Of a stretch of DNA of 64,000 bases, positions 1 through 10,546 are shown in pieces. Every line of letters starts with the position of its first letter. Positions within the stretch are counted from its first letter, which is position 1. The notes beneath the pieces were generated by a model. The model saw only the letters and a program-made list of their open reading frames with translations, did not search any database and had not been told where the DNA came from. Both the position numbers and the translations under genes were made by a program. The stretch is from Achromobacter sp. Root83 (lineage in GTDB: Bacteria > Pseudomonadota > Gammaproteobacteria > Burkholderiales > Burkholderiaceae_B), in NCBI RefSeq assembly GCF_001428845.1, contig NZ_LMIU01000012.1:376857-440856 (forward strand), given 5' to 3'.

Positions 1-253
1 GGAACCCGACCACGGCCACCCATTCGATGGGTGCGCCGCGTTGGATCGCTCGTCCAATGGCGTCATAGCGCCGATGACCGTCCACCACCTCGACGCCGGA
101 GCCGTCCGGCAGGGCGACGACTTCGAGCGCGGGGAAAGTGCCGCCATCCAGGATGTAGGCGGCCAGGGCTTCGATACCGGCGTCATATTCTTCATCGAGG
201 TCGCGAAGGTCGAAACCCTCTTTCACGGGGATATCGGAATAGCGAACTTTCAT
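1..253 (-). CDS. ParB-like nuclease-domain phage protein, C-terminus beyond window
   Basis: Reading the minus strand from ATG 253 gives 84 residues that run off the left window edge. The fold signature of the ParB N-terminal domain is visible: a leading 'VRYSDIPV' strand, then 'VVDGHRRYDAI' (compare the ParB G-x-H-R-R box). Proteins of this kind are common in prophages near terminase genes, where their role is unclear; DNA binding is family knowledge, not shown here. The frame is open upstream of ATG 253 to a stop at 317-319, and a more natural start (ATG 318-320, 'MTQPP') lies in another frame, joined through a run of seven C on this strand (305-311). One fewer C would give a continuous protein of 22 more residues. 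So this is either a start at 253 or a frameshifted gene. Confidence 0.6.
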   Translation of the reverse strand, partial: MKVRYSDIPVKEGFDLRDLDEEYDAGIEALAAYILDGGTFPALEVVALPDGSGVEVVDGHRRYDAIGRAIQRGAPIEWVAVVGF

Positions 254-367
254 TGCGCCGGCGCGTTTGATCGTGCCGTCCTTGATCGTCGACTTGAACG
301 ATGCGGGGGGGCTGAGTCATGTTGGTTCCAAGAAGTAGATTCGCTGTACGATCCCTTCCGTCAAAAC

Positions 368-832
368 GTGGAGGAATCATGGGGAATCACTCCTTGGGCT
401 ACAGCCGTGCAAGCGATCACGTCGATTTTGGCTGTAGTGATTGCCATCGGTCTTCCGGTGATCTCAAAGCTCCGAGATGACGGGCAGAAGAGGAAGGACC
501 GCGCTGCGCTCTTGCTAGTGGCAAAAAACTTGGCTCTACACGCCGAGAGGGCGATGACATCGTCAACTGATAAACTGGGTACTGCGAATTCAATACCTAC
601 GTACAGATTGCGAGATGTTCGCGATAGCTTTCATGTACTTCTTGCGAAGGACTTGCCCGAAGAGGCAATACCTCCCATTCTCGAAATTCTGTGTGAAGTG
701 GCTTATCAGGTTGCTGCCATTCGCCTATACAAAGTTGGAGGAAACAGAACGACGGACTTGACGGAGAAGGCCCGGATACGGCTCGGAAAGGTGACGGCGC
801 AAGTAGCCGTGTTGAATCAGATTTCGAGCTGA
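368..832 (+). CDS. Small membrane protein of unknown function (pair member 1)
   Basis: I do not recognise this protein. From GTG 368 it has about 154 residues: a short N-terminal stretch, one hydrophobic segment at about residues 12-29 ('TSILAVVIAIGLPV'), and a soluble C-terminal domain predicted to be helical, with no signal-peptide cleavage site. The open frame continues upstream to 41, but that part is antisense to the ParB-like gene and has no protein character, so the start was placed at GTG 368; no convincing Shine-Dalgarno decides it. The base composition is clearly more AT-rich than the chromosome to the right. The next gene starts 8 bases downstream and is also a membrane protein, so the two probably form one cargo unit. 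Confidence 0.5.
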   Translation: MEESWGITPWATAVQAITSILAVVIAIGLPVISKLRDDGQKRKDRAALLLVAKNLALHAERAMTSSTDKLGTANSIPTYRLRDVRDSFHVLLAKDLPEEAIPPILEILCEVAYQVAAIRLYKVGGNRTTDLTEKARIRLGKVTAQVAVLNQISS

Positions 833-840
833 TATTCTGC

Positions 841-1542
841 ATGGCTGACACTGCGGGGAGGTTCGGATACTATGCGCGGCAGAACCTTTTGGGGACGCGT
901 TTGAAGAACTTCAAGTGGTATGAGTGGGCAGTGCTTGCCGCGCTGACAGCGATGCTTTTTGGCGGTGCCGCACTTTCTCCATGGGGGAAGGCACTTCTCA
1001 AATTTGAGGCTGCTCCGGCTTGGATTCAGGCTGTTTTTTCAGTAGTGGCAATCTTGGCCGGTGCGGGCTTTGTTCTGTGGCAGCACCACCTGCAAATGAG
1101 GCGGGATGCTCAGATTCGAATCGAGAATCGTGTTGAAGCATTCGAGCCGTTATGCGGTCTTATTGGTCAAGCGCTTTGGCAGATGAGTCACATACAGGAC
1201 GCAGTTGATGGCCGGATTCCTGTAGAGGAAGTCCTGGAAACTGACGTCATCATTGATGATGTTTCATCGCTTCTGGAGGCAATGGATCGCGTAAATGTTC
1301 ACGAGCTTCCTACTGCGTACCTTTGCGCATATTTCATAGATGTACGCCGTGTACTCCGACGTATGGAGATCCAACTTCGCCGCGCTGCTGCTGACTGGCG
1401 TGTCGACTCCATAGATCCTCGCTGGAAACTCCAACTTCATGCGGCACAGGAGGCAAAGCGTCAGGTTAGCAACACGCTGCATATCTTCCACAACGCAATG
1501 ACTTCTATTAGCCGGGGCGAAAGACCGGAATTGCCCATTTGA
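841..1542 (+). CDS. Two-pass membrane protein of unknown function (pair member 2)
   Basis: This is a 233-residue protein that I do not recognise. It has two hydrophobic segments, at about residues 29-47 ('AVLAALTAMLFGGAAL') and 60-80 ('WIQAVFSVVAILAGAGFVLW'), followed by a basic stop-transfer sequence and a soluble helical domain of about 150 residues. The layout (membrane hairpin plus cytoplasmic domain) resembles many defence or exclusion-type membrane effectors, but no catalytic motif is visible, so function is not assigned. It follows the other small membrane gene by 8 bases and shares its AT-richer composition, which points to joint transfer. Downstream is a gap before the minus-strand small genes. 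Confidence 0.6.
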   Translation: MADTAGRFGYYARQNLLGTRLKNFKWYEWAVLAALTAMLFGGAALSPWGKALLKFEAAPAWIQAVFSVVAILAGAGFVLWQHHLQMRRDAQIRIENRVEAFEPLCGLIGQALWQMSHIQDAVDGRIPVEEVLETDVIIDDVSSLLEAMDRVNVHELPTAYLCAYFIDVRRVLRRMEIQLRRAAADWRVDSIDPRWKLQLHAAQEAKRQVSNTLHIFHNAMTSISRGERPELPI

Positions 1543-1561
1543 GATGGGAAGCTTCCAGGGC

Positions 1562-1792
1562 CTATCGTCCCGGCTCAACCGCGCCAGATGTGGCGGATGG
1601 CCTGCGGTGATATGCCGCAGCACTCACCCGGCTATTTCGCTGATAGGCGCCTCTTAGCGCCCTTGATGAACGCCCGCTCTTCGATTCGGAAGGCCTCTTG
1701 CTTTGGGTCAATTCAGCACAAGTGACGGTGGGCAACGGGACCGGCGGCTTCCGGTCTGCGCTATCCTTTAGCATAAATTCGATGCCGTTCAT
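1562..1792 (-). CDS. Doubtful small protein at the end of a chain of overlapping genes
   Basis: The ATG at 1790-1792 overlaps the stop of the preceding 77-residue membrane gene in an ATGA junction, so translational coupling is possible. The product would have 76 residues, 'MNGIEFMLKDSADRK...', rich in Arg, Ser and Pro. In another frame on the same strand a more protein-like stretch ('KQEAFRIEERAFIKGAKR') ends at a stop in the same interval, which suggests a frameshift or that only part of this is real. No function can be proposed. Confidence 0.25.
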   Translation of the reverse strand: MNGIEFMLKDSADRKPPVPLPTVTCAELTQSKRPSESKSGRSSRALRGAYQRNSRVSAAAYHRRPSATSGAVEPGR

Positions 1793-2022
1793 GCGACGAG
1801 CAGCAGCAGCCACCCGAGGACCTGCGGGCCGAAGAGAAAGAATGCCGCCAGCGCCAGGCTGGCGGGCCAGGCCCACAGGGGGAGATCCGCGTCCTTGTTC
1901 CAATTGCCTTTGCCGGCGTGGTCGCGGGGCGCGATCAGATTGCCCAGCTTGCGGGCGGCCTGCCTGATCGTGATGGGATTACGGTGGCGCACCGGGGGCG
2001 CGCTTGCGCTGATGGTGTTCAT
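1789..2022 (-). CDS. Small protein with C-terminal membrane anchor
   Basis: The 77-residue product starts at ATG 2022 ('MNTISASAPP'). The N-terminal 50 residues are basic and hydrophilic; the last 25 form a single hydrophobic helix ('WPASLALAAFFLFG'...'GWLLLLVA'). The start overlaps the stop of the 42-residue gene upstream (ATGA), and its own stop overlaps another ATG, so three tiny genes are coupled. An open frame extends further upstream but overlaps the 42-residue gene fully, so the ATG at the overlap is preferred. Tail-anchored small proteins like this occur in phage and plasmid regions; no family is recognised. Confidence 0.45.
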   Translation of the reverse strand: MNTISASAPPVRHRNPITIRQAARKLGNLIAPRDHAGKGNWNKDADLPLWAWPASLALAAFFLFGPQVLGWLLLLVA

Positions 2023-2147
2023 GTCGGGTTCCAGGGATCGGCCGCGACGTAGCGGCGGTTGAAGTGTTCGCAGATGGGAACCAGCGCCACCGCCGCGAGG
2101 GCGAGCAGGGCCAGCCCCCACCAGATGGCGGGGATAGTTGAGGGCAT
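2019..2147 (-). CDS. 42-residue membrane peptide
   Basis: A short gene read from ATG 2147 to TGA 2019: 'MPSTIPAIWWGLALLALAAV' followed by a hydrophilic tail 'CEHFNRRYVAADPWNPT'. It has one hydrophobic helix at about residues 7-26 with the N-terminus short. The stop overlaps the start of the next gene by the ATGA arrangement, which supports that both are translated. It begins just downstream of the large hairpin at 2175-2267. Function unknown; similar one-helix peptides are common in phage genomes. Confidence 0.4.
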   Translation of the reverse strand: MPSTIPAIWWGLALLALAAVALVPICEHFNRRYVAADPWNPT

Positions 2148-2174
2148 GGGATCTGCGCAGACTTGCGCGTTGGT

Positions 2175-2267
2175 TGGCTTCGGAAAGCGGGCCGGTAGCC
2201 CGGTGAATTCCTGAAAGTCACTTTCAGCGCCGGTGACGTTGCGGCGCCGGCCCGCTCTCCGAAGCCA
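2175..2267 (-). repeat. Large nested hairpin: 21-bp inverted repeat around a second palindrome
   Basis: Arms at 2175-2195 and 2247-2267 are inverted copies of 21 bases with one difference, which in a minus-strand RNA would be a G-U pair. Inside the loop, 2211-2227 is itself a palindrome (8-bp arms, one-base centre). The element separates the stop of the 59-residue gene (2297) from the start of the 42-residue gene (2147). There is no T-run on either side, so it is not a simple terminator. It could be a replication or packaging signal of single-stranded-DNA phage type, an RNA switch, or a recombination site. Confidence 0.7.
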
Positions 2268-2296
2268 CCCCGACGAGCGGGCTAGGCGGATGCTGT

Positions 2297-2476
2297 TTAC
2301 TGGACGAGCATGCCCTGGAACTTACCCAGGCCGGCGGTCAGCTTCTTCTTGCCGACCAGGTGTTCGACGCTGAAGCCGCGGCCATGCGGCTTGACGGCGG
2401 TTACCACTGCTTCGATGGGCGGCTTGCGCTTGGGGCCTTTCAGTTTGTACGTGTTGCCGACGGTAATTTCGGACAT
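2297..2476 (-). CDS. Small basic protein, 59 residues
   Basis: Read from ATG 2476 with a good ribosome-binding site (AGAGGA seven bases upstream). The product begins 'MSEITVGNTYKLKGPKRK' and ends 'GLGKFQGMLVQ'. It is strongly basic, without hydrophobic segments, and its alternation of short strands and glycines is compatible with a small beta-barrel (SH3 or OB-like) nucleic-acid-binding protein; that is inference from composition only. It sits in a hairpin-rich stretch and is transcribed toward the tiny membrane genes. Confidence 0.5.
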   Translation of the reverse strand: MSEITVGNTYKLKGPKRKPPIEAVVTAVKPHGRGFSVEHLVGKKKLTAGLGKFQGMLVQ

Positions 2477-3109
2477 GGATTCCTCTGGAGTGATCGGCGC
2501 CGACCGGGCGCCATGGATTGAAAAGCTGGCTGTGCCTTACCAGTGATTCGCCTTGGCGATCACGTGCAGGACGTTGAACAGGGCCGCGCCGATTTGGCGC
2601 AGCGAGCGTGAGCATTGCGAACATGGGGAAGTCCTTGAGACAGACAGAGGGAGGGGAAAGCTGATCAGGGAGGCGCGCCCCTTCGCCAGGGCGCGCCAGT
2701 CACACAAGTTGAACCCAGGCACGGCAGAATGCCGGTGGAGATACGCCGGCTTGAACAGCCGAGCGGAGCCGGAAAATTGGTCCGGCGTAGATGCTGCCCA
2801 AAACGGCGCATGCGTCGCATGAGCTACAGCGGCACCCCGAAGAGGTTGTTGCCGATCATAAAGAAGCGCCGGCCCGCAGAGGGATGAGTCCGCACATGAG
2901 GTCTGCCGGCGGTCGGTGAGTTGTCGCAGGGCGGACGTCTATTCGCTATCTGCACATCCGTTGTGCTTCAAGCCGTCTTCGATTGGTCAAATTGGAGGAT
3001 CAACGATGGGCTTCGGTCCACGGATTTGCAATTGCGAGGTGCCGCCGGCGCCACGAGTACGAACGAGGCCCCTACAGGGCTCAGATTGAGCATTGCCGCT
3101 CGCCCCGAG
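2477..3109. other. 633-base stretch without a firm gene; hairpin-rich
   Basis: No gene can be supported. Perfect short inverted repeats are seen at 2496-2501/2507-2512, 2586-2590/2596-2600, 2672-2680/2689-2697 (nine pairs) and 2768-2773/2781-2786. On the minus strand an AAGGA ribosome-binding site precedes an ATG at 2624, but the frame that follows looks non-protein-like, while another frame holds a plausible end ('RSLRQIGAALFNVLHVIAK') stopping at 2537, as if a short gene were frameshifted. A minus-strand open stretch ending at 2822 ('FFMIGNNLFGVPL') may be the end of a lost gene. Confidence 0.4.
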
Positions 3110-3676
3110 TCAGCCGAACGGCTTTTCCAACCAATTCTTGAGATCCTCCAGGCCTTGCGAAAAGAATGAGTTCATCTCGTTCACTGGATCATTGATGAGT
3201 TTCCTCATGTCACCACCGATTTGTAGGAAGTCCAATACGTCATCCCGTACCTTAGGAACGAACGCATTTTCACCACCCAGTGGTTTTCCATGGAAAACTT
3301 CTCCAAGGTCCACATGGGCGGCCGCCAGATTTCCTGTCAGTAGAATCAGGGGCAACATGGCAATCCCGAGCGCTATGTCGCTGACCTTCTGCGCATCGCC
3401 TATCCAATTGGGCACCGCTACTTTGTCGCACTCTCCTTCATGAGTCTGGGCATTTATTATGCCGAGGCCCTTCGATTCTTTGATTTTGTCAAGAAGTTTG
3501 ATCAGGTTGATCGTGGCGATGCCGCCCTGTATGGAGTACTGAGCAGGGTCTCGGCCGGCGGCGAGTTCGTCAGCGATTATCTTCTCGGTGGCTTCAATCC
3601 TGGGATTAAAGAACTCTTCGACCTTTTCCCGAATTTTCTGACCATAGCTCGCACACTGAGCGTTGGTGATTGTCAT
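3110..3676 (-). CDS. Unknown protein, paralogue A of a tandem pair
   Basis: 188 residues, not recognised. It aligns along its length with the next gene upstream (3689-4270). Shared landmarks in order: a Cys near residue 8 ('AQC'), 'GGIATIN' at about residue 51, a second Cys followed by 'VPNW' at about 83-90, a hydrophobic segment at about 101-120 ('LGIAMLPLILLTG'), 'VDLGEVFHGK', 'GGENAFVPKVRDD' and 'IGGDMRKLINDPVNE' near residue 155. There is no signal peptide. The gene lies 12 bases after the stop of its paralogue and is the last of three co-oriented genes; the composition is AT-richer than the chromosome. Two conserved cysteines and a central hydrophobic helix suggest a small membrane-interacting or secreted protein, but this is inference. 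Confidence 0.7.
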   Translation of the reverse strand: MTITNAQCASYGQKIREKVEEFFNPRIEATEKIIADELAAGRDPAQYSIQGGIATINLIKLLDKIKESKGLGIINAQTHEGECDKVAVPNWIGDAQKVSDIALGIAMLPLILLTGNLAAAHVDLGEVFHGKPLGGENAFVPKVRDDVLDFLQIGGDMRKLINDPVNEMNSFFSQGLEDLKNWLEKPFG

Positions 3677-3688
3677 TTCACTTCCTCC

Positions 3689-4270
3689 TTACCACTTGGG
3701 CCAATTGATCTTCGGTAGCTGTGGCAACGCCTTCTTCATCGCCTCAACTGCGTCGTTCACGGTGTTGCGTACCTCATTCACAGGGTCCCGAAGCACCTTG
3801 GCAACGTCACCTCCGATGCCCAACGCATTGAACGCCTCCTCCCGGGCTTTCGGGATCAATGCATCATCGCCACCAAACGTCCGTCCTTTATAGACCTGAC
3901 CCAAGTCAATCTTGGCTGCGGCGTAACTTTTGGTAAGAGCGACATACGGAAGCAGCGCGACCGTCATCGCGAAGTCAGTAGTTTTCTGAACGTCCGAAAG
4001 CCAGTCAGGTACCGCGTTGGCGTCACACTGAGCTGCCTTGGCCTCCGCGTCGCTGTACGCCAGTTGTTTCGCGTCGATCGTGTCCTGCAACAAGCGCTCA
4101 TAGTTGATGGTGGCGATCCCATCTGCAAGCTCTATTTTCGACGGGTCCTTACCTTCGTCGTTCGCTTTCTGAATCAGTTCTCTGGTTTCATTGATCTGGT
4201 GGTCGTAGAAACGATCCGCTTGTTCGCGGATTGCATTTCCCCAGTCCTCACATTGCGCTTTGTAAGTCAT
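3689..4270 (-). CDS. Unknown protein, paralogue B of a tandem pair
   Basis: 193 residues, not recognised, a clear paralogue of the gene at 3110-3676 (identity estimated by eye at about 40%). Conserved landmarks: 'AQC' at residues 5-7, 'DGIATIN' at about 51, 'QCDANAVPDW' at about 82-91, a hydrophobic stretch at about 100-118 ('MTVALLPYVALT'), 'IDLGQVYKG', 'GGDDALIPKAREE' and 'IGGDVAKVLRDPVNE'. The C-terminus is longer and proline/tryptophan-rich ('LPQLPKINWPKW'). An AGAGGA ribosome-binding site lies just upstream of the ATG. It starts 9 bases after the stop of the repeat-protein gene, so all three genes are probably one transcript. A duplication with divergence suggests the two products work together or recognise different partners. 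Confidence 0.7.
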   Translation of the reverse strand: MTYKAQCEDWGNAIREQADRFYDHQINETRELIQKANDEGKDPSKIELADGIATINYERLLQDTIDAKQLAYSDAEAKAAQCDANAVPDWLSDVQKTTDFAMTVALLPYVALTKSYAAAKIDLGQVYKGRTFGGDDALIPKAREEAFNALGIGGDVAKVLRDPVNEVRNTVNDAVEAMKKALPQLPKINWPKW

Positions 4271-4279
4271 ATCGTCCTC

Positions 4280-4582
4280 TTAGAACTTAATCCCAAGTCG
4301 CTCAAACGCCTTGACGATGTCATTGTTTGGCCCCGCCCCTTTTGTGATGTCGTTCCACGCCGTCTGGAGAGCCTTCCTGATGTCGTTGTTCTCGCCCGGC
4401 CCGTTCGCAATGTCGTTCCAGGCGGTTCGGAGGGCCTTGACGATCTCCCCATTTGGTCCGAAGGGCTCTTTGGAATTGAGTTCTTTGATTAATTGATCCA
4501 GGGCGATGAGAACGAGTGCTGACACCGGATCCACTTCGGTGCAAACGCCTGAATTGCAAATAACGCCTACCGTGTCAGTCAT
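4280..4582 (-). CDS. Small protein with three tandem 21-residue repeats
   Basis: 100 residues, not recognised. The first 40 residues include two cysteines ('ICNSGVC') and a hydrophobic helix ('VSALVLIALDQLI'). The rest is made of three repeats of about 21 residues with the pattern G-P-N-N/E-D/E-I-V/R-K-A-L/F...W-N-D-I, visible also as a 63-base period in the DNA (about 4283-4460). The repeat core G-x-N/D-D-I-x-K resembles 'GGDVAKVL' and 'GGDMRKLI' in the two downstream paralogues, so all three products may share a motif. The ATG has a strong purine-rich site upstream (AGAGGGGG). First gene of the three-gene operon. Confidence 0.7.
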   Translation of the reverse strand: MTDTVGVICNSGVCTEVDPVSALVLIALDQLIKELNSKEPFGPNGEIVKALRTAWNDIANGPGENNDIRKALQTAWNDITKGAGPNNDIVKAFERLGIKF

Positions 4583-4938
4583 GAGAGCCCCCTCTGTTTA
4601 TTCTCAGGTTGTTACTGCCCCGTCCAATCTAGATGTGGCAGTATCGCGATTCGCCACCGAGGATTTTCGCCTCGTAGGGAAAGGCTACCAATAAGTTACT
4701 CGCGGAATTGGGCGCTTCCATATACCCAATTCGGCGGATGCCAATTTGCAGGTGTTCTGGTCGCGCGGCGGCCACAAGGTACTTTTGAGTGGAATCTATT
4801 CGCGATGACTGGTCGAGACCCGAGGGAGGCTTAGTATTTTTTCCGCACTAATTGAGCGGGTCACGCGAGAACGATTTGCTTCGGTAAGCGCCGCACGCGA
4901 CGCTGGCCGAAACCCGCTTTTCAGCGGAATCGGATTTC
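4583..4938. other. Non-coding stretch between the unknown operon and phage remnants
   Basis: No gene is supported here. It must contain the promoter of the leftward three-gene operon; a weak candidate is TTGGAC (4622-4627, minus) with GAGAAT (4600-4605) 16 bases away. A perfect 8-bp inverted repeat separated by 12 bases lies at 4705-4712 / 4725-4732 (GAATTGGG / CCCAATTC) and could be an operator. The rest is featureless. Confidence 0.35.
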
Positions 4939-5130
4939 ATGCGAGGGTTATCGTCGCCACCCTGGCGGGCGTTGACCGAGGCATCCGCCCGTCACGTTCT
5001 GTTGTGCCTTGCCAATTATGCGGGGCCAAAGGGTGAGGGGGCATTCCCCTCTGTGGCTACTTTGGCGGAAGACACCGGGCTGTCCACTCGCACGGTGCAG
5101 AACAAGCTGCGTGAGTTGGAAGTCCGCCGC
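4939..5130 (+). pseudogene. 5' fragment of a phage helix-turn-helix replication protein
   Basis: About 64 residues from ATG 4939 have the layout of phage replication-initiation HTH proteins: 'ARHVLLCLANYAG' (helix), 'AFPSVATLAEDTGLSTRTV' (helix-turn-helix), 'QNKLRELE'. Such proteins are usually 200-300 residues and act as origin-binding or O-like proteins. Here the similarity stops near 5130 and the frame runs on into non-protein-like sequence that is out of frame with a lysis-type gene. The simplest reading is a deletion that fused the start of a replication gene to the late lysis region of a prophage. Confidence 0.55.
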
Positions 5131-5180
5131 GACCCGAAGGGCCTGCAAAGAGCTTCTGGCAAGGGGAGCGGGGCGGGGGC

Positions 5181-5516
5181 ATGGTGCGGGGTGTTCGGAC
5201 CCATGAGGGGACACGCGACCAGGCCGCGTTGGTCTATCAGGCGCACGGGGTGGCCGCAAATGATGGCGCAATCTGGAACGCCATCGAACAGGACGGCCTG
5301 CTGGCCGCAGCGCTCACGCGGCTACTGCTCTGGTCAGATCCCCGACCGTTGCCCGCTGTTGGCGACGAAGAGGCCGCGTTGGCGCTCTACCTGCGTACGT
5401 GGCGACCCGGCGCATATGCCCGCGGCACCGCCAACGAGCGTGCGCAGCTTCGTGCCAAATGGTCCGCTAACTACGCCGCCGCAATGGGGGAGGTCGACCA
5501 TGTTGGCGCTGTTTGA
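5181..5516 (+). pseudogene. 3' part of a phage lysis-region protein
   Basis: In this frame, from about 5212, the product reads as real protein: 'GVAANDGAIWNAIEQDG', 'LPAVGDEEAALALYLRTWRP', 'GAYARGTANERAQLRAKW'. The W-R-P-G-A-Y...R-A-x-L-x-x-K-W ending is one I associate with small proteins coded just ahead of holin or spanin genes in Burkholderiales prophages, but I cannot name the enzyme. Its N-terminus is missing, replaced by the HTH fragment. It overlaps the start of the following membrane gene by 17 bases, as late lysis genes often do. Judged a fragment, not an active gene. Confidence 0.4.
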
Positions 5517-5700
5517 GCGATTCAAGGGATATCTGGTGGCCGTTGGTGCTGCTCTGGCGGTGGCACTCGGGGCCTATCTGCGGGGGCGCAGCGCAGGCAA
5601 AGGGGGCGGAGCGTAAGCGGCGCGCAGTAGAGGTAAATGAACAGGCCGTCGAGGCCCACAAGGAGGCGCGTGATGTGCAGTTGGAAACGGCCCGTATGTC
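5500..5700 (+). pseudogene. Spanin-like (Rz-type) gene with a frameshift and lost 3' end
   Basis: From ATG 5500, preceded by a GGGGGAGG site, the protein has a membrane anchor ('GYLVAVGAALAVALGAYL') followed by a charged region. The first frame stops at 5616, but the charged coiled-coil part continues in the next frame ('AKGAERKRRAVEVNEQAVEA', 'HKEARDVQLETARM'), so a one-base shift near 5590 broke the gene. An N-terminal anchor plus periplasmic coiled coil, next to a lysis gene, is the plan of an inner-membrane spanin. The similarity ends near 5700, where autotransporter sequence begins. Confidence 0.5.
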
Positions 5701-6159
5701 TCGAGTGCCAGGGCTTATGTCGGTGCATTGGACGGCTCGGGGGAGGTGAGCGTCCGTGGAGCTGACTCACATTGGAACGTAGCCTCGACCATCCTGGTTG
5801 GCATGCCCGCGAACGGCAAGTTGACAATCTCTGAAGGAGGCAAGGTATCCGCGCAATCCCTCAGTCTGGCTACGACTTCTTCCTCGTCCGGCAAACTGAT
5901 CATTGGCAGCGAAAGCGGTTCTCCTTTGGTGGCGCCAGGCACAGTCGAAACCTCTCGCGTTGTCTTTGGTCCCGGCGACGGTCAGATCCTGCTTAACCAC
6001 TCCTCGTTGAATTACGTGTTTGATGCTGCGATCAACAATGGTGCCAACAACGACGTGGGTTCCAACACGGGCTTAGTGGGGAGCGGTCGAATCGAAGCGT
6101 CGGCCGGCCGCAGTATTCTCAATGCTGATCACCGCGACTTCACGGGTGTTCTGCAAGTC
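5701..6159 (+). pseudogene. Fragment of an autotransporter passenger domain
   Basis: The frame starting at 5701 encodes about 153 residues with the beta-helix repeat style of classical autotransporters: 'GSGEVSVRGADSHW', 'STILVGMPANGKLTISEGG', 'SGKLIIGSESGSP', 'DFTGVLQV'. These match the passenger-associated repeat pattern (G-x-V-x-V-x-G-x-x-S-x-W ... V-G-x-x-G-x-G-x-L-x-I). No signal peptide and no beta-barrel are present, so it cannot work by itself. The left end abuts the broken spanin gene and the right end is lost shortly before the SRAP gene. It is a scar of recombination that brought a chromosomal adhesin piece into or beside the prophage. Confidence 0.65.
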
Positions 6160-6238
6160 GGAGGGGCAGGGAGGGTACGGCTCCGGCCCCTTCACAGTGC
6201 CTCAGCCTTCGCACTTCTTAGAGCAGCGTCACTCCGGA

Positions 6239-6913
6239 TCAGCCCGCTGGTGTGGCGACGAGCTTTCCGGCGGGGAAGGGCATTAATAAGTCCTGGCTCT
6301 GCTCGGCCCTCGCCGTCAGCCAGTCGCCGTAGGCACCCTCCGGCAGGATCACGATCATGCGCTTTTCCTTGCCTGCCTGGTGGTAGTCGCGGAAGAGGGG
6401 ATCGGCGTCCGCGTTGATTGTCAGCATCGTGTAGCTGTCCTGCCACTGGCCGGCCGCATCCAGGTAGCGGTCCCAAACGATGCCTAGCGGCGCGTCGTCG
6501 ACTCTAGTGAAGCGCGTGGCAATCGAGTTCGTGCTGGTGCTCTCGTATACGGGGCGCCAGTCGGGCTCGAAGATTGCATCAGCGGGAATGATGCAGTGCT
6601 GCGCACGGCGCCAGGCGTTGCGGAAGGTGAAGGCGTGGGCGACACGGTCGTCGCGGGCGTTGAAGGTGGATAGCTTTGCGTCTTTCTCCAATCCGTTGGG
6701 CCCAGTCGATGCGGATATCAGACCCCAGCGGCCGACCGTCGCCTCACGACCCGGCACAGCCTCGTCGCCGGCGTCGTACTCCGGCGGCCTGCGCACAAAG
6801 ATCCCCTGATACTGCGGCCACATGTTGTACTTGCCGGCGGGCGGCTTCTCGCGGACGCCGAATTTCTTCAGCAGTAGTTCGGCGTCTTTCAGGGTCTGAT
6901 AGTGGCTGCACAT
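6239..6913 (-). CDS. SRAP-family peptidase (abasic-site DNA-protein crosslinker)
   Basis: 224 residues starting MCSHY, so that Cys2 becomes N-terminal after removal of Met; in the SRAP family (YedK/HMCES) this Cys forms a thiazolidine crosslink with abasic sites in single-stranded DNA. Other family landmarks are 'LSTFNARDD' (the N-A-R motif), 'HCIIPADAIFEP' and a C-terminal 'MLTINADADPLFRDYH' that supplies the conserved His. The usual start is MCGRY, so S3-H4 is a variant seen in mobile-element copies. It stands alone, on the minus strand, between the autotransporter scar and the toxin-antitoxin group. Phage and plasmid copies are thought to protect replication forks or counter host defence. 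Confidence 0.88.
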   Translation of the reverse strand: MCSHYQTLKDAELLLKKFGVREKPPAGKYNMWPQYQGIFVRRPPEYDAGDEAVPGREATVGRWGLISASTGPNGLEKDAKLSTFNARDDRVAHAFTFRNAWRRAQHCIIPADAIFEPDWRPVYESTSTNSIATRFTRVDDAPLGIVWDRYLDAAGQWQDSYTMLTINADADPLFRDYHQAGKEKRMIVILPEGAYGDWLTARAEQSQDLLMPFPAGKLVATPAG

Positions 6914-6966
6914 AGAACCTTCATGGAGGATCTAGGTATAGGAGCCGCCATTCGCCCGCAGCGGGG

Positions 6967-7440
6967 TTACTGGCTCAACGGCTGCATATGCGGAAAGACC
7001 GGGTTCCCTTGCCCCACTTTTAGCGCCGCGCCTTTAACTTCGCCGTTCTCCGTGATAATTTTGCTGCGAATCATGGTGGGCTGCTGGACGACCAAAGGGG
7101 TAAGAAAAAACTGGGTTCGGAACCCGACCATCTTCTCCTCAAAGCCTTCAAGGTCCACCTGCGAGGCTGCTAATTTCTGTTGCTGCAGCACCTCTTGCGG
7201 GAAATCCATGGCGAGCAGTTGATCCCCCGCATCCGTCGTCAGTTCGAAACGTAGAGAGCGAAGTTGTTCCTCGAAAGGAGTGCCAATCTCCACTGATATT
7301 GCGAACTTCGGCAGCGTGAGCGGGAAAGACTGCGCCAGCAATGTTCCATTGAAGATGCCTATCAGAGAAGTTTGGCCTGTCAGTTCCAGCCGAACATCCT
7401 CGCAATAGACGACCGTTAACTTGCGGGTGGTGTCACGCAT
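6967..7440 (-). CDS. DUF6941-like protein, third gene of a toxin-antitoxin operon
   Basis: 157 residues. The N-terminal part ('VVYCEDVRLELTGQTSLIGI', then 'FNGTL') looks like the small family I know as DUF6941, of unknown function and predicted beta-sandwich character; the match is from memory. The last third is more variable. The ATG lies inside the end of the upstream antitoxin gene (8-base overlap), so the three genes toxin, antitoxin and this one are translationally coupled. A dedicated third component suggests a chaperone or modulator as in tripartite toxin-antitoxin-chaperone modules, but there is no sequence proof for this. Confidence 0.6.
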   Translation of the reverse strand: MRDTTRKLTVVYCEDVRLELTGQTSLIGIFNGTLLAQSFPLTLPKFAISVEIGTPFEEQLRSLRFELTTDAGDQLLAMDFPQEVLQQQKLAASQVDLEGFEEKMVGFRTQFFLTPLVVQQPTMIRSKIITENGEVKGAALKVGQGNPVFPHMQPLSQ

Positions 7441-7861
7441 GTTGTGCAGTTTCCAGCGTAGTTTCTAATGCCGCAGCGACCGCGGCCGTGGACAAGTTCA
7501 ACGCCTTGGCCAGCTTTTGGAGGGTGGTGAAGGTGGGATTGTCCTTACCCGCTTCCAGCCGCGCTATTTGAGGCTGCTTTATACCCATTGCGTCCGCAAG
7601 CTTTCGTTGTGACATTCCGGCCCTCAAGCGAAGCACTGCAAGAGTAGGAGTCTCCGCGTGTTCCGGATAGAGCAGATCGGCAATCGACCGGGTAGCTTCC
7701 GCCACTGCGGCCTCGCCAGCCGTGGCCTCCAGTGGGCCAAATACGTCGTCTAAGGAAAACTCAGTTTGCGCGACGGGCGGCGCCACATCGAGCGCAGGCA
7801 CTTCGATGAGCTGGTGACCCACGCATATCCACTGCTTTTCCAGCGAGAGGATGGTCTGCAC
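7433..7861 (-). CDS. HTH (Xre/HigA-type) antitoxin
   Basis: About 142 residues from GTG 7861. The C-terminal half is a classical Xre helix-turn-helix: 'LRLRAGMSQRKLADAMGIKQ' followed by 'PQIARLEAGKDNPTFTTLQK'. The N-terminal half (about 75 residues) is an acidic region likely to bind the toxin. The frame stays open upstream, but the toxin gene ends at 7863, and the GTG directly at that stop is the coupled start. HigA-type antitoxins repress their own operon through the HTH. Gene order here is toxin first, then antitoxin, the order typical of the higBA family. Confidence 0.75.
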   Translation of the reverse strand: MQTILSLEKQWICVGHQLIEVPALDVAPPVAQTEFSLDDVFGPLEATAGEAAVAEATRSIADLLYPEHAETPTLAVLRLRAGMSQRKLADAMGIKQPQIARLEAGKDNPTFTTLQKLAKALNLSTAAVAAALETTLETAQHA

Positions 7862-7862
7862 A

Positions 7863-8300
7863 TCAGGGTGTGGAGCCGCGAACCCCGTCGTAGGCGCGCA
7901 GCATACGAACGGCAGTAGGACTCTTGAGATCATCATAGTCGAACTCAGATTTATCGTTGAGTTGCTTGTACACAACGGCCAGGACGTGTGCTTGGTCGTA
8001 ATGGGCGTCGTGCATGCAGTAAAAAATGCGGAAACACTTGCCGTTCCGCTCGAGGTCCAGATCTTTCAGTCTCCAAAGACCGTGGCCCTTCGCTTGGGCT
8101 TTTCGCCATTTGAGTACGTTGAACTTGTCTTGCGCGTTCCGAAACTCACCATAGCCGTCTTCCCAAATTTTCTCGAACTTGGCTGGGTCTGCTTCCAATT
8201 GGCGGAGCATCTGGCCAAGCTGAAGCATCTCCACTGAATGGGCGAAGCTGAGGAGCTGGATGTCCTCAAGCGCGTCCCGGTGGAAGATGAATTTCCCCAT
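7863..8300 (-). CDS. RelE/HigB-like toxin
   Basis: 145 residues read from ATG 8300. The C-terminal part 'GLWRLKDLDLERNGKCFRIF' then 'AHVLAVVYKQLNDK' follows the pattern of RelE/HigB-superfamily ribosome-dependent RNases: a strand with an Arg, a strand ending in Ile-Phe-Tyr, and a strand before a Lys-rich loop. The N-terminal 40 residues are helical. It overlaps the downstream HTH antitoxin, which supports the assignment. A TATAAT hexamer (8301-8306, minus) touches the ATG, so either transcription starts inside the gene and a later Met is used (for example Met24), or this hexamer is not the promoter. Confidence 0.65.
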   Translation of the reverse strand: MGKFIFHRDALEDIQLLSFAHSVEMLQLGQMLRQLEADPAKFEKIWEDGYGEFRNAQDKFNVLKWRKAQAKGHGLWRLKDLDLERNGKCFRIFYCMHDAHYDQAHVLAVVYKQLNDKSEFDYDDLKSPTAVRMLRAYDGVRGSTP

Positions 8301-8475
8301 ATTATATAGTAAAAGTTATCAAAATGGGCAAGCAAGAATTGGACGCCTTCATGGGCTAAGCAATGATACCCCATTTGTTACAAGGGCGGACTGAAGGGTA
8401 CGCTGATGGGACAGCACCCTACCGAATGCTGACCAAAAAGCTGACCACTCTACCCAAAACAGCCCAAAACAGCCC
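8301..8475. other. Junction between accessory DNA and ssrA
   Basis: No gene is seen. The toxin operon promoter should lie at the left end. At 8453-8480 there is a short direct repeat of about ten bases (CCCAAAACAG). Because ssrA points its 3' end at this stretch, the integration site of the accessory element is expected close to 8537; its partner copy would be beyond the left edge of the window. Confidence 0.4.
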
Positions 8476-8510
8476 AAAAAAAAAGGCCAACTTTTAGGAT
8501 TGGCCTTTTC
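8476..8510 (-). terminator. Rho-independent terminator of ssrA
   Basis: On the minus strand an AAAAGGCCAA / TTGGCC stem is followed directly by a run of nine T. It lies 27 bases beyond the CCA end of the tmRNA. Confidence 0.85.
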
Positions 8511-8536
8511 TAAGTGCTTGATAACACTAGGGTATT

Positions 8537-8926
8537 TGGTGGAGCCGGGGGGAATTGAACCCCCGTCCGCAAGCCCTCTGCAATCAGTTCTACATGCGTA
8601 GTCGATTTATTTAGTTTTAACTTTGGACTTAGCCAACCGACAGGCCGGACCAAAGCGATTCACGTAATTTAAATCTGAGCCGTGTGACCCCAGCGCAGAC
8701 CGATTCCTTGTGAATGTCGCTGCTGCGGTTCGAGGGTTACCCCCCTAGGAAGTTGCCTTCCTCCGCCTGACCCAAGGACAGATCAGTGCAGCGGCTCACC
8801 GCTTAAGCGGCGAGAGCGAAACGCTCGTCGTTGGCGTTTGTAGTGTTTCCAGTGGTTTAACGAGCGAACTGGTGCTCGGCATGCCCTGAGTTGTTTCGCG
8901 ACCCACGTCGAATCCGGATCGGCCCC
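8537..8926 (-). ncRNA. ssrA: Transfer-messenger RNA
   Basis: 390 bases, 5' end GGGGCCGATCC at 8926 and 3' end GGCTCCACCA at 8537, which pair into the alanine-tRNA-like acceptor; the T-arm GGTTCAATTCCCC precedes the 3' end. The RNA rescues stalled ribosomes and adds a degradation tag. A one-piece gene is seen, with the tag frame at 8803-8835. The 3' end is a preferred target of phage and island integrases, and foreign DNA indeed lies directly to the left. A TACAAT -10 box (8937-8942, minus) ends ten bases upstream of the mature 5' end. Confidence 0.95.
8803..8835 (-). other. tmRNA tag-peptide frame (ANDERFALAA)
   Basis: The codons GCC AAC GAC GAG CGT TTC GCT CTC GCC GCT TAA encode ANDERFALAA. 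The ending A-L-A-A is the signal for ClpXP; this tag is the one I associate with Bordetella and close relatives. Confidence 0.93.
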
Positions 8927-9016: not shown

Positions 9017-10201
9017 TCAGGCCGCCCCGGCGCATGCGGGCTTGGCTTGCCGGCCCGGGCGCGAGGCCGCCATCAGCAACAGGGCCAGGCCCACCGAAAT
9101 GGCCACGATGACCGCCGCGGCCGCCCCGAGGGAGGTCAGGCCGTAGTTGTCGATCACATGTCCGCCCACCACGGCGCCCAGGCCGATGCCGATGTTGGCA
9201 CCGGAAATGTTCAGGGACGCCGCGAACGCGGGCGCTTCCGGGGCGGACTTCATCAGGCGCACATGGCACACGATGAACAGCGCGGCCTGCGCGATGCCCC
9301 ATATCCCCAGCGCGACGGCGAGCAACCCATGCGACTGCATGACGGGCGCGACGAACGCCAGTCCCGCGGCCATCAGCGACGAGAACAGGGCGGTGGCCCC
9401 CAACGGACTGCGGTCCACCATGCGGCCGCCCAGTGTGTTGCCGGCCAGCCCGACGGCGCCGAAGGCCATCATCGTCCAGCCGACGGTCTCGCCGTTGAAG
9501 CCGGCCAGGCGCTCCAGCATGTCCGCCAGGTAGGTGTAGGCGGTGAACATGCCGGTGAACACCAGCAGCGACAGCAGCACGTGCCCGATCACGATCGGGT
9601 TGCGCAGGATGCGCAGTTGCGTGACGAGCCGGACGCTGTTGGCCCGGATACGGGTGCTGGGGAAGGTGAAGAGCAGCAGCAAGGCCTTGGCGAACGCCAC
9701 CACCGACAGGACCCAGAAGGCCGCGCGCCAGCCGAATGCGTCCGAAATCAGTACACCGATGGGAATCCCGAACACCGTGGCGGCCACGATGCCGAAGGCC
9801 ACCATCGAGATGGCGCGGCCGGCGCGCGCCGGGCCGACCAGCTCCACGGCGGTGGCGCTGGCCAGCGACCAGAACACCGGCAGGGCCAGCGCAGGCACGA
9901 AGCGGGCAACCGCCATGATCCAGATGTTGGGCGCAACGGCCGCCAGGGCATTGGAAAGCCCAAACAGCACCAGCACGCCGATGAACAGGCGCTTGCGCTC
10001 GATGTTTGCCATCAGGGCGGTCAGGAGCGGACCGGTCGCGGCGACGGTGAAGGCAAACAGGGTCACCAGCAGACCCGCCTGGGATACGGTGACGTTCAGG
10101 TCGCGGGCCAGGCCTGGAAGCAGGCCCACGATCAGGAACTCGGTGGTCAGGATGGTGAAGCCGGCGGCGGATAGAAGCAGAATAGGCAAAAGCATAGGCA
10201 T
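9017..10201 (-). CDS. MFS transporter, DHA1 (AraJ/NepI-like) type
   Basis: About 394 residues with twelve hydrophobic segments. It starts at ATG 10201, preceded by AGAGGA; a longer open frame upstream to 10411 is Pro/Arg-rich and not protein-like. The N-terminus 'ILTTEFLIVGLLPGLARDL' is typical of AraJ/NepI-type proton-driven drug or sugar exporters, and the loop 2-3 region 'LLTALMANIERKRLFIG' is the degenerate A-like motif of that branch. The substrate cannot be read from sequence. It stands alone between ssrA and gph. Confidence 0.85.
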   Translation of the reverse strand: MPMLLPILLLSAAGFTILTTEFLIVGLLPGLARDLNVTVSQAGLLVTLFAFTVAATGPLLTALMANIERKRLFIGVLVLFGLSNALAAVAPNIWIMAVARFVPALALPVFWSLASATAVELVGPARAGRAISMVAFGIVAATVFGIPIGVLISDAFGWRAAFWVLSVVAFAKALLLLFTFPSTRIRANSVRLVTQLRILRNPIVIGHVLLSLLVFTGMFTAYTYLADMLERLAGFNGETVGWTMMAFGAVGLAGNTLGGRMVDRSPLGATALFSSLMAAGLAFVAPVMQSHGLLAVALGIWGIAQAALFIVCHVRLMKSAPEAPAFAASLNISGANIGIGLGAVVGGHVIDNYGLTSLGAAAAVIVAISVGLALLLMAASRPGRQAKPACAGAA

Positions 10202-10546
10202 TCCTCTGGCGCGATGCCGAAAGGCAGCACGCGGGCAGGGCGGTGTGGGGCGCAGTAAAAAGGTCGGGTGTGCGCGGCGGCAAGGGCGCGGGCACGGTGC
10301 GAGAGGGCGGAAGGCCGTCAGCGCGGAGCTCTGGTGCGGCGGATATGGCGGAAGCGGCAACGCCGGCGTCAGCCGGAAAGGCAATCGGGGAACACCCCGA
10401 GCGCCAGGCATGCTTCACACTTTAAGGGACTTGGACTTCAGGATAAAGCGTCCAGATCCGGAAAGATTGTTCGGTCAGCTTCACTAATGGACGCGAACGA
10501 TCGTAAAGAGCGTCTCGGGCCGCCAGGCGGCGGCCCGTCCCGTGTG
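10202..10546. other. 345-base intergenic stretch between gph and the MFS gene
   Basis: No gene is supported. At 10516-10524 / 10529-10537 there is a perfect nine-bp hairpin with a four-base loop just beyond the gph stop; no T-run follows at once, so it is a weak terminator candidate for gph. Near 10420-10440 lies a direct GGACTTGGACTT repeat that might be part of a regulator site for the MFS gene; this is speculative. Confidence 0.35.

What the first reader, a model, noticed from the sequence alone, without database searches (positions are those of the whole stretch)
3110..4582. Three-gene operon of unknown function: repeat protein plus two tandem paralogues
Three co-oriented genes with 9- and 12-base gaps encode a 100-residue repeat protein and two paralogous 188/193-residue proteins that match no family I know. 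The paralogues keep two cysteines, a central hydrophobic helix and the motifs GGxxAxxPKxR and IGGDxxKxxxDPVNE. The operon is AT-richer than the chromosome and lies as cargo in an accessory region between phage remnants. Paralogue pair plus small partner could be an effector/immunity, exclusion or toxin-like set.
Basis: partly seen in the sequence, partly recalled or inferred. Interest (0 to 1): 0.78.

Follow-up and report, generated by a model that had tools for sequence, protein, structure and literature searches.

The report
Undescribed three-gene mobile-element cassette
Three small neighbouring genes of unknown function, carried inside a prophage remnant, turn up as the same ordered trio in a few unrelated bacteria, often beside genes of mobile elements, and their distant relatives carry export signals, so they look like a travelling kit whose job has yet to be found.

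Summary
Genes A (100 aa repeat protein), B (193 aa) and C (188 aa) lie on the minus strand with 9- and 12-base gaps. They match no Pfam, PHROGs, NCBIfam, PADLOC or PDB sequence convincingly. They sit in a 12.1-kb element inserted at ssrA (31-bp perfect att repeat, integrase remnant, empty site in two same-genus genomes). Mobile-element genes lie close by at four of the five. A B/C tandem pair stands at 8 of 10, two of them virus contigs. Two new facts: (1) the family splits into a leader-bearing and a leaderless class on one 100/100 branch, and both keep a cysteine pair that could staple a helical hairpin; (2) A's repeat module also stands at or near the end of larger rhizobial proteins. Effector/immunity is not supported. 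The likeliest reading is a heteromeric, export-type cargo system, perhaps phage or element exclusion; a secreted antagonist is the main rival. Function is inferred only.

The parts
4280..4582 (-). gene A: 100-aa protein; N-terminal CxxxxC, hydrophobic helix, then about three ~21-residue GPxNND-turn + helix repeats
   Evidence: (low-confidence model)
3689..4270 (-). gene B: 193-aa paralogue 1; predicted long helical hairpin with C7 and C82, then FGGxxALIPK / LGIGGD / RDPVNE module and a short Pro-containing tail
3110..3676 (-). gene C: 188-aa paralogue 2; same motifs, strongly hydrophobic segment at 101-119
8535..8565 (.). attR: 31-bp perfect direct repeat at the 3' end of ssrA; the partner attL is 3.5 kb left of the window (G000:C12:373314-373344), beside an integrase remnant
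8537..8926 (-). ssrA (tmRNA), the integration target of the element
1..8534 (.). the part of the 12.1-kb ssrA-inserted element that lies in the window (replication-initiation-like fragment at 4939-5616, SRAP, DUF6941, HTH and the trio)

Best explanation
A, B and C are the three parts of one mobile cargo system that act together as a heteromeric assembly built for the outside of the cytoplasm. B and C each form a long helical hairpin closed at its base by a disulfide, followed by a hydrophobic helix and a GGxNA/IGGD module; A is a small repeat protein with a similar glycine-asparagine turn. Carried by prophages, islands and plasmids, the assembly most likely changes the host envelope so that competing phages or elements are kept out (lysogenic-conversion or exclusion type). 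SHOWN: the conserved trio, recurrent tandem pairing, mobile setting at several loci, signal-like leaders on distant relatives, invariant cysteine pair. INFERRED: disulfide, complex formation, site of action. GUESS: exclusion as the benefit, and how the leaderless forms leave the cytoplasm, if they do.
For: Same order A-B-C at 5 of 10 B/C loci read with context: window, L004, L005, L055 and L007; a six-frame profile search found A at these five and at none of the other five. B/C tandem pair at 8 of 10; the two singles are L008 and L003. In the tree B and C are separate groups in the leaderless class (C 96/82, B 95/72); L006C and L007C group together (100/100) apart from their B partners; the virus contigs give two groups, L017B+L018B (99/84) and L017C+L018C (100/99). 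13 of 33 A homologues, the window's own included, share their longest-contig length with a B/C hit or locus, a circumstantial lower bound. Leaderless: 22 of 22 (P0001-P0022) have exactly two Cys, spacing 75; leader-bearing: 59 of 59 rows examined have a Cys pair at spacing 55-110. In the model of B the helices 2-38 and 57-84 have block-mean pLDDT 88-98 over residues 11-80, and C7 and C82 fall at the open end by position (distance not measured). Mobile setting: ssrA att repeat with integrase/excisionase remnants and empty site; integrase 3.7 kb from the trio in L004, AlpA and a D5_N/Toprim primase in L005, transposase in L055; IMG/VR virus contigs; conjugative plasmid with an A+D pair.
Against: No phenotype is known. 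The window's proteins have no signal peptide and no room for one (stops 3-5 codons upstream), so an envelope role needs an unexplained export route. Neighbour defence genes (Eco57I methylase and IrrE in L004, YhcG in L020, TIR/SLATT in L012) occur at some loci only, two of which have no B/C. For the trio at L007 no mobile-element gene was identified. PADLOC gave only a chance-level hit. L012 pairs a leaderless A with a leader-bearing partner, so export state is not always matched. In L055 gene B is frameshifted. The profile link between A repeats and the B/C module is weak: hhalign E 0.0013, probability 19%, and E 0.017, 2.7% with the wider alignment.
Confidence: 0.35

Rival explanations
1. 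A secreted or lysis-released antagonist: B and C are two related components and A a third part of an assembly that inserts into membranes of competitor cells, like multi-component alpha-helical pore formers or bacteriocins.
For: Two paralogues with hydrophobic central stretches (C 2.04 over 19 residues, above the usual transmembrane cut-off of about 1.6, which I recall), hairpin architecture, leader-bearing relatives, virus-contig and plasmid carriage.
Against: No recurring immunity gene was noticed; A is the most conserved part and no swapped domain is seen; no similarity to a toxin family or solved toxin by sequence; fold matches are only generic long hairpins.
Confidence: 0.25
2. A cytoplasmic anti-phage system of the leaderless branch: the exported fold came to work in the cytoplasm, where the cysteine pair senses or responds to infection.
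For: Single-branch leaderless class (100/100); place in an element with AlpA and a D5_N/Toprim primase in L005, the element type in which anti-phage reservoirs between psu and int are reported (PMC9122126, passages read); Eco57I methylase and IrrE neighbours in L004.
Against: psu was not searched for in L005, and a 53-aa ORF that I took for an integrase fragment there has no Pfam match; no known effector domain; PADLOC only a chance-level hit.
Confidence: 0.15
3. A host-interaction or niche-adaptation factor of soil and root bacteria that merely travels on mobile DNA.
For: Of the leader-bearing relatives and A-module fusions that have a name, most are in Bradyrhizobium, Mesorhizobium, Sinorhizobium, Bosea or Microvirga.
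Against: Very sparse: B/C in 2 of 242 genomes of the Bradyrhizobium genus group, 1 of 268 family genomes; the leaderless trio also in an enterobacterium and a nitrifier.
Confidence: 0.15
4. An ordinary decaying prophage remnant without function.
For: The element is degraded: 177-aa integrase remnant, replication-protein fragment; B is frameshifted in L055.
Against: The trio is intact in the window, L004 and L005 and under strong purifying selection between them.
Confidence: 0.03

Closest known systems
Cargo cassettes of prophages and P4-like satellites (Rousset et al. 2022, PMC9122126; passages read)
   Same: Small multi-gene cassette in an integrated element, very patchy, unrelated hosts
   Different: No model of the trio in PADLOC; no anti-phage test exists; leader-bearing relatives; psu and int not shown at L005
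tRNA/tmRNA-integrated genomic islands (Islander, PMC4383910; search listing and start of abstract only)
   Same: Integrase beside an att repeat; the ssrA 3' end is kept whole at one end
   Different: Nothing unusual; this describes the carrier, not the trio
Multi-component alpha-helical pore-forming toxins (recalled, no call)
   Same: Paralogous helical components with a hydrophobic segment
   Different: Much smaller proteins, no sequence or convincing fold match, third part is a repeat protein
A-module proteins of rhizobia (L014, L015, L056-L059)
   Same: Same GPxNND repeat, at or near the C-terminus of long proteins, several with a visible N-terminal leader or membrane segment
   Different: Fused to unrelated long N-terminal parts; no B/C partner noticed in the stretches read

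Membership tests
ssrA-integrated mobile element (carrier) | direct repeat of the ssrA 3' end at the other boundary | tested here: met
   31-bp perfect repeat, window 8535-8565 and C12:373314-373344
ssrA-integrated mobile element (carrier) | integrase next to the att site | tested here: met
   177-aa integrase remnant ending 2 bases from attL, phrog_1 E 3.7e-22; excisionase-like gene near it. Shorter than a full integrase
ssrA-integrated mobile element (carrier) | empty site in relatives | tested here: met
   of 42 relatives, flank+att+ssrA uninterrupted in G015 (90%) and G003 (89%), partly in G007; in the other 39 the ssrA match starts at or near att, so they say nothing
effector/immunity (polymorphic toxin) pair | recognisable toxin or immunity domain | tested here: not met
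   no Pfam or NCBIfam family above cut-off for A, B, C
effector/immunity (polymorphic toxin) pair | variable effector tip with matched variable small partner | tested here: not met
   A is 75-92% identical in the 22 nearest homologues and more conserved than B and C between the same loci; B tails vary in length but are Pro- or Ala-rich, not swapped domains
known anti-phage defence system | match to a described defence protein | tested here: not met
   PADLOC-DB 2023: no hit for A or C, one chance-level hit (E 0.019) for B
known anti-phage defence system | reduces phage plating | not testable with these tools
   needs an experiment
superinfection-exclusion / lysogenic-conversion protein | encoded by prophages on the strand opposite to neighbouring phage genes | tested here: inconclusive
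   B/C pairs in two virus contigs lie on the strand opposite to the flanking large reading frames, one of them tail-lysozyme-like (L017, L018); n = 2
superinfection-exclusion / lysogenic-conversion protein | located in the envelope | tested here: inconclusive
   signal-like N-termini in relatives (hydropathy only); none in the window's proteins
multi-component alpha pore-forming toxin | same fold | tested here: inconclusive
multi-component alpha pore-forming toxin | pore formation | not testable with these tools
   needs an experiment

The most novel reading that the evidence does not exclude
A new kind of three-component system that exists in two states, an exported one with leaders and a leaderless one that arose once and spread as a fixed A-B-C trio on phage-like elements across beta-, alpha- and gammaproteobacteria. 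In the leaderless state the disulfide-type fold would be released by cell lysis or work inside the cell, in competition between mobile elements.
Probability: 0.15. Interest if true: 0.8.

Novelty: new variant of a known kind. Interest (0 to 1): 0.5.

Why it matters
It gives a defined protein family that none of the libraries searched describes, with a fixed trio, a distinct leaderless branch and a repeat module that recurs in larger proteins of rhizobia. If it excludes phages or kills competitors it would be a new system of inter-element conflict; either way the trio is small, intact and easy to test.

Tried and rejected
Rejected: toxin/immunity (no domain, no swapped tip). Random ORFs (conserved trio, purifying selection). 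My early impression that the 530-aa neighbour in L006 is MACPF-like: no support by Pfam, NCBIfam or PDB sequence search. My reading of a 53-aa ORF in L005 (8510-8671) as an integrase fragment: no Pfam match, so the claim was dropped; AlpA and the primase there stand. My impression that L021:18164-18946 is a paralogue of window 841-1542 or 41-832: no match to either. Common ancestry of A repeats and the B/C module: only weak; a lipoprotein-like Klebsiella ORF (L016) carries both kinds of motif.

Led nowhere: phage records (no match), E. coli genomes (no match), fold searches (only generic hairpins; no listed family is excluded by absence), promoter and terminator scan (1 promoter-like site against 1.0 expected, 1 terminator-like against 2.9). 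A's model (mean pLDDT 58.9) was too poor to search.

Limits: signal peptides were judged by hydropathy, not by a predictor; the two classes were set by list after looking (leader class lowest score 1.43, leaderless highest 1.29). Genome searches scored only part of the first-look candidates, so those counts are lower bounds. Rows P0115-P0121 (7) were left out of the tree and the Cys census as short or odd; P0020 and P0075 were left out of the tree as duplicates of L055C and L003. L055 B enters the tree in its frameshifted reading. The L055 A rows used wrong coordinates and are ignored; the right ones are 10143-10445 (-). The Cys census allowed spacing 55-110 for both classes; only the leaderless class turned out fixed at 75. 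G795 (L055) is unnamed; it was found in the genus group of B. archetypum.

Full report
What is there. On the minus strand of the window, three ATG-started genes follow one another with gaps of 9 and 12 bases: A (4582-4280, 100 aa), B (4270-3689, 193 aa) and C (3676-3110, 188 aa). Each has a purine-rich stretch just upstream. B and C are paralogues (39% identity, E 1.7e-42 in the own genome). None of the three reaches a Pfam or NCBIfam cut-off, and no PHROGs, PADLOC or PDB-sequence match is convincing (best E 0.009-0.07).

The carrier. The 3' end of ssrA (tmRNA 8537-8926) is repeated perfectly over 31 bp 3.5 kb left of the window, 2 bases from an integrase remnant and near an excisionase-like gene. 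The stretch from repeat to repeat is 12,108 bp, 57.7% GC, and also holds a fragment resembling a replication-initiation protein, an SRAP gene, DUF6941 and an HTH gene. Of 42 same-genus genomes, G015 and G003 have flank, att and ssrA uninterrupted and G007 partly; in the other 39 the ssrA match starts at or near att, which says nothing about them. G032 has a second flank-plus-att copy 3.6 kb from ssrA, as if another element had used the site; a flank piece 12 kb away in G007 is less clear. B/C was not found in the other 42 genomes of the genus, in 267 of 268 genomes of the family or in 397 of 398 sampled from the phylum, nor A in 397 of 398; the family and phylum searches scored only part of the candidates.

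Relatives. Searches of 5.8 billion proteins gave 23 homologues of B and 33 of A (each including the window's own) and 66 with a profile of distant B/C members, one of them already seen. Ten B/C loci could be read with their surroundings. A B/C pair without A stands at three: Pseudogulbenkiania L006 and the virus contigs L009/L017 and L018. Single genes stand at two: L008 and the Mesorhizobium plasmid L003. A six-frame search with the A profile confirmed A at those five and found none at the other five. At L012 (K. variicola plasmid) and L019 (virus contig, integrase in the same stretch) A is followed instead by D, a longer leader-bearing protein with cysteines, a GGENS motif and a CVPWC end.

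Mobile setting. Besides the window's ssrA element, L004 has a phage-type integrase 3.7 kb from A, L005 an AlpA regulator and a primase with D5_N and Toprim domains, L055 a transposase 1.5 kb from C. None was identified at L007.

Two states. N-terminal hydropathy splits the B/C family in two: members with a signal-like leader before the first core cysteine, and members whose first cysteine is residue 6-9. In the window, stop codons 3-5 codons upstream rule out a longer leader-bearing reading. In a 96-row tree the 28 leaderless rows are one side of a 100/100 branch. The tree is unrooted, so leader loss and leader gain are not told apart, and the branch is long (1.49). Inside the leaderless side B and C are separate groups (95/72 and 96/82); the nearest rows to window B are P0003 and P0002 and to window C is P0021. 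All 22 leaderless proteins have exactly two cysteines, 75 residues apart; 59 of 59 leader-bearing proteins examined have a pair at spacing 55-110.

The A module elsewhere. A's repeat also stands at or near the C-terminus of larger proteins in the Bradyrhizobium genus group (L056-L059), Microvirga (L014) and Sinorhizobium (L015), several with a visible leader or membrane segment, and sometimes followed by GGxNSVxNNPxQ repeats; 9 of 146 genomes of that genus group had an A-profile hit, two of them the trio genomes. A lipoprotein-like Klebsiella ORF (L016) matches both the A module (E 4e-3) and, weakly, the B/C module (E 1.8e-4). Profile comparison of A with B/C is suggestive only (E 0.0013, probability 19%; weaker).

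How it probably works. Fixed order, recurrent pairing and purifying selection (A: pN 0.11, pS 0.89 against Nitrosospira) argue for one multi-part machine. Leaders in relatives and the cysteine pair argue for a fold made for the oxidising side of the membrane. Carriage by an ssrA element, an AlpA/primase element, virus contigs and plasmids argues for a benefit to the carrier. P4-like satellites keep anti-phage reservoirs between psu and int (PMC9122126, passages read); I did not search for psu in L005. I therefore rank exclusion or conversion at the envelope first (0.35), an antagonist assembly second (0.25), and cytoplasmic defence and niche adaptation next (0.15 each). No result here shows function.

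Verdict. What makes it more than one more orphan operon is the leaderless branch and the recurring repeat module.

Noticed in passing
window 6239-8300 (-) and L017 4419-7874: A small ORF, an HTH gene, a DUF6941 gene and an SRAP gene lie together in the window; a virus contig with a B/C pair has a similar set (small ORF, HTH_3, DUF6941 just under its cut-off, SRAP). The two DUF6941 proteins match each other only weakly.
   Followed up: partly
G032 and G007 (same genus), ssrA locus: ssrA may be an integration hotspot of the genus: a second flank-plus-att copy lies 3.6 kb from ssrA in G032; a short flank piece 12 kb away in G007 is less clear.
   Followed up: no
L014 8060-10363, L058 7768-10083, L059 7611-9590: Long rhizobial proteins with Cys-rich repeats, the A module and GGxNSVxNNPxQ-like repeats; L058 and L059 have a visible leader and L059 a sub-threshold LprI match.
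   Followed up: partly
L006 8327-9919: 530-aa ORF with a signal-like start, ending 12 bp upstream of a B/C pair; no convincing family match.
   Followed up: partly
L012 10001-11104 and L019 4069-5356: A paired with a longer leader-bearing partner D (38% identical between the two), on a conjugative K. variicola plasmid and a virus contig.
   Followed up: partly
L013 10238-10926, L020 10238-10927, L056 8946-9635: A hydrophobic, membrane-type protein follows the A module on a Bradyrhizobium plasmid, a virus contig and a genome of the genus group.
   Followed up: no
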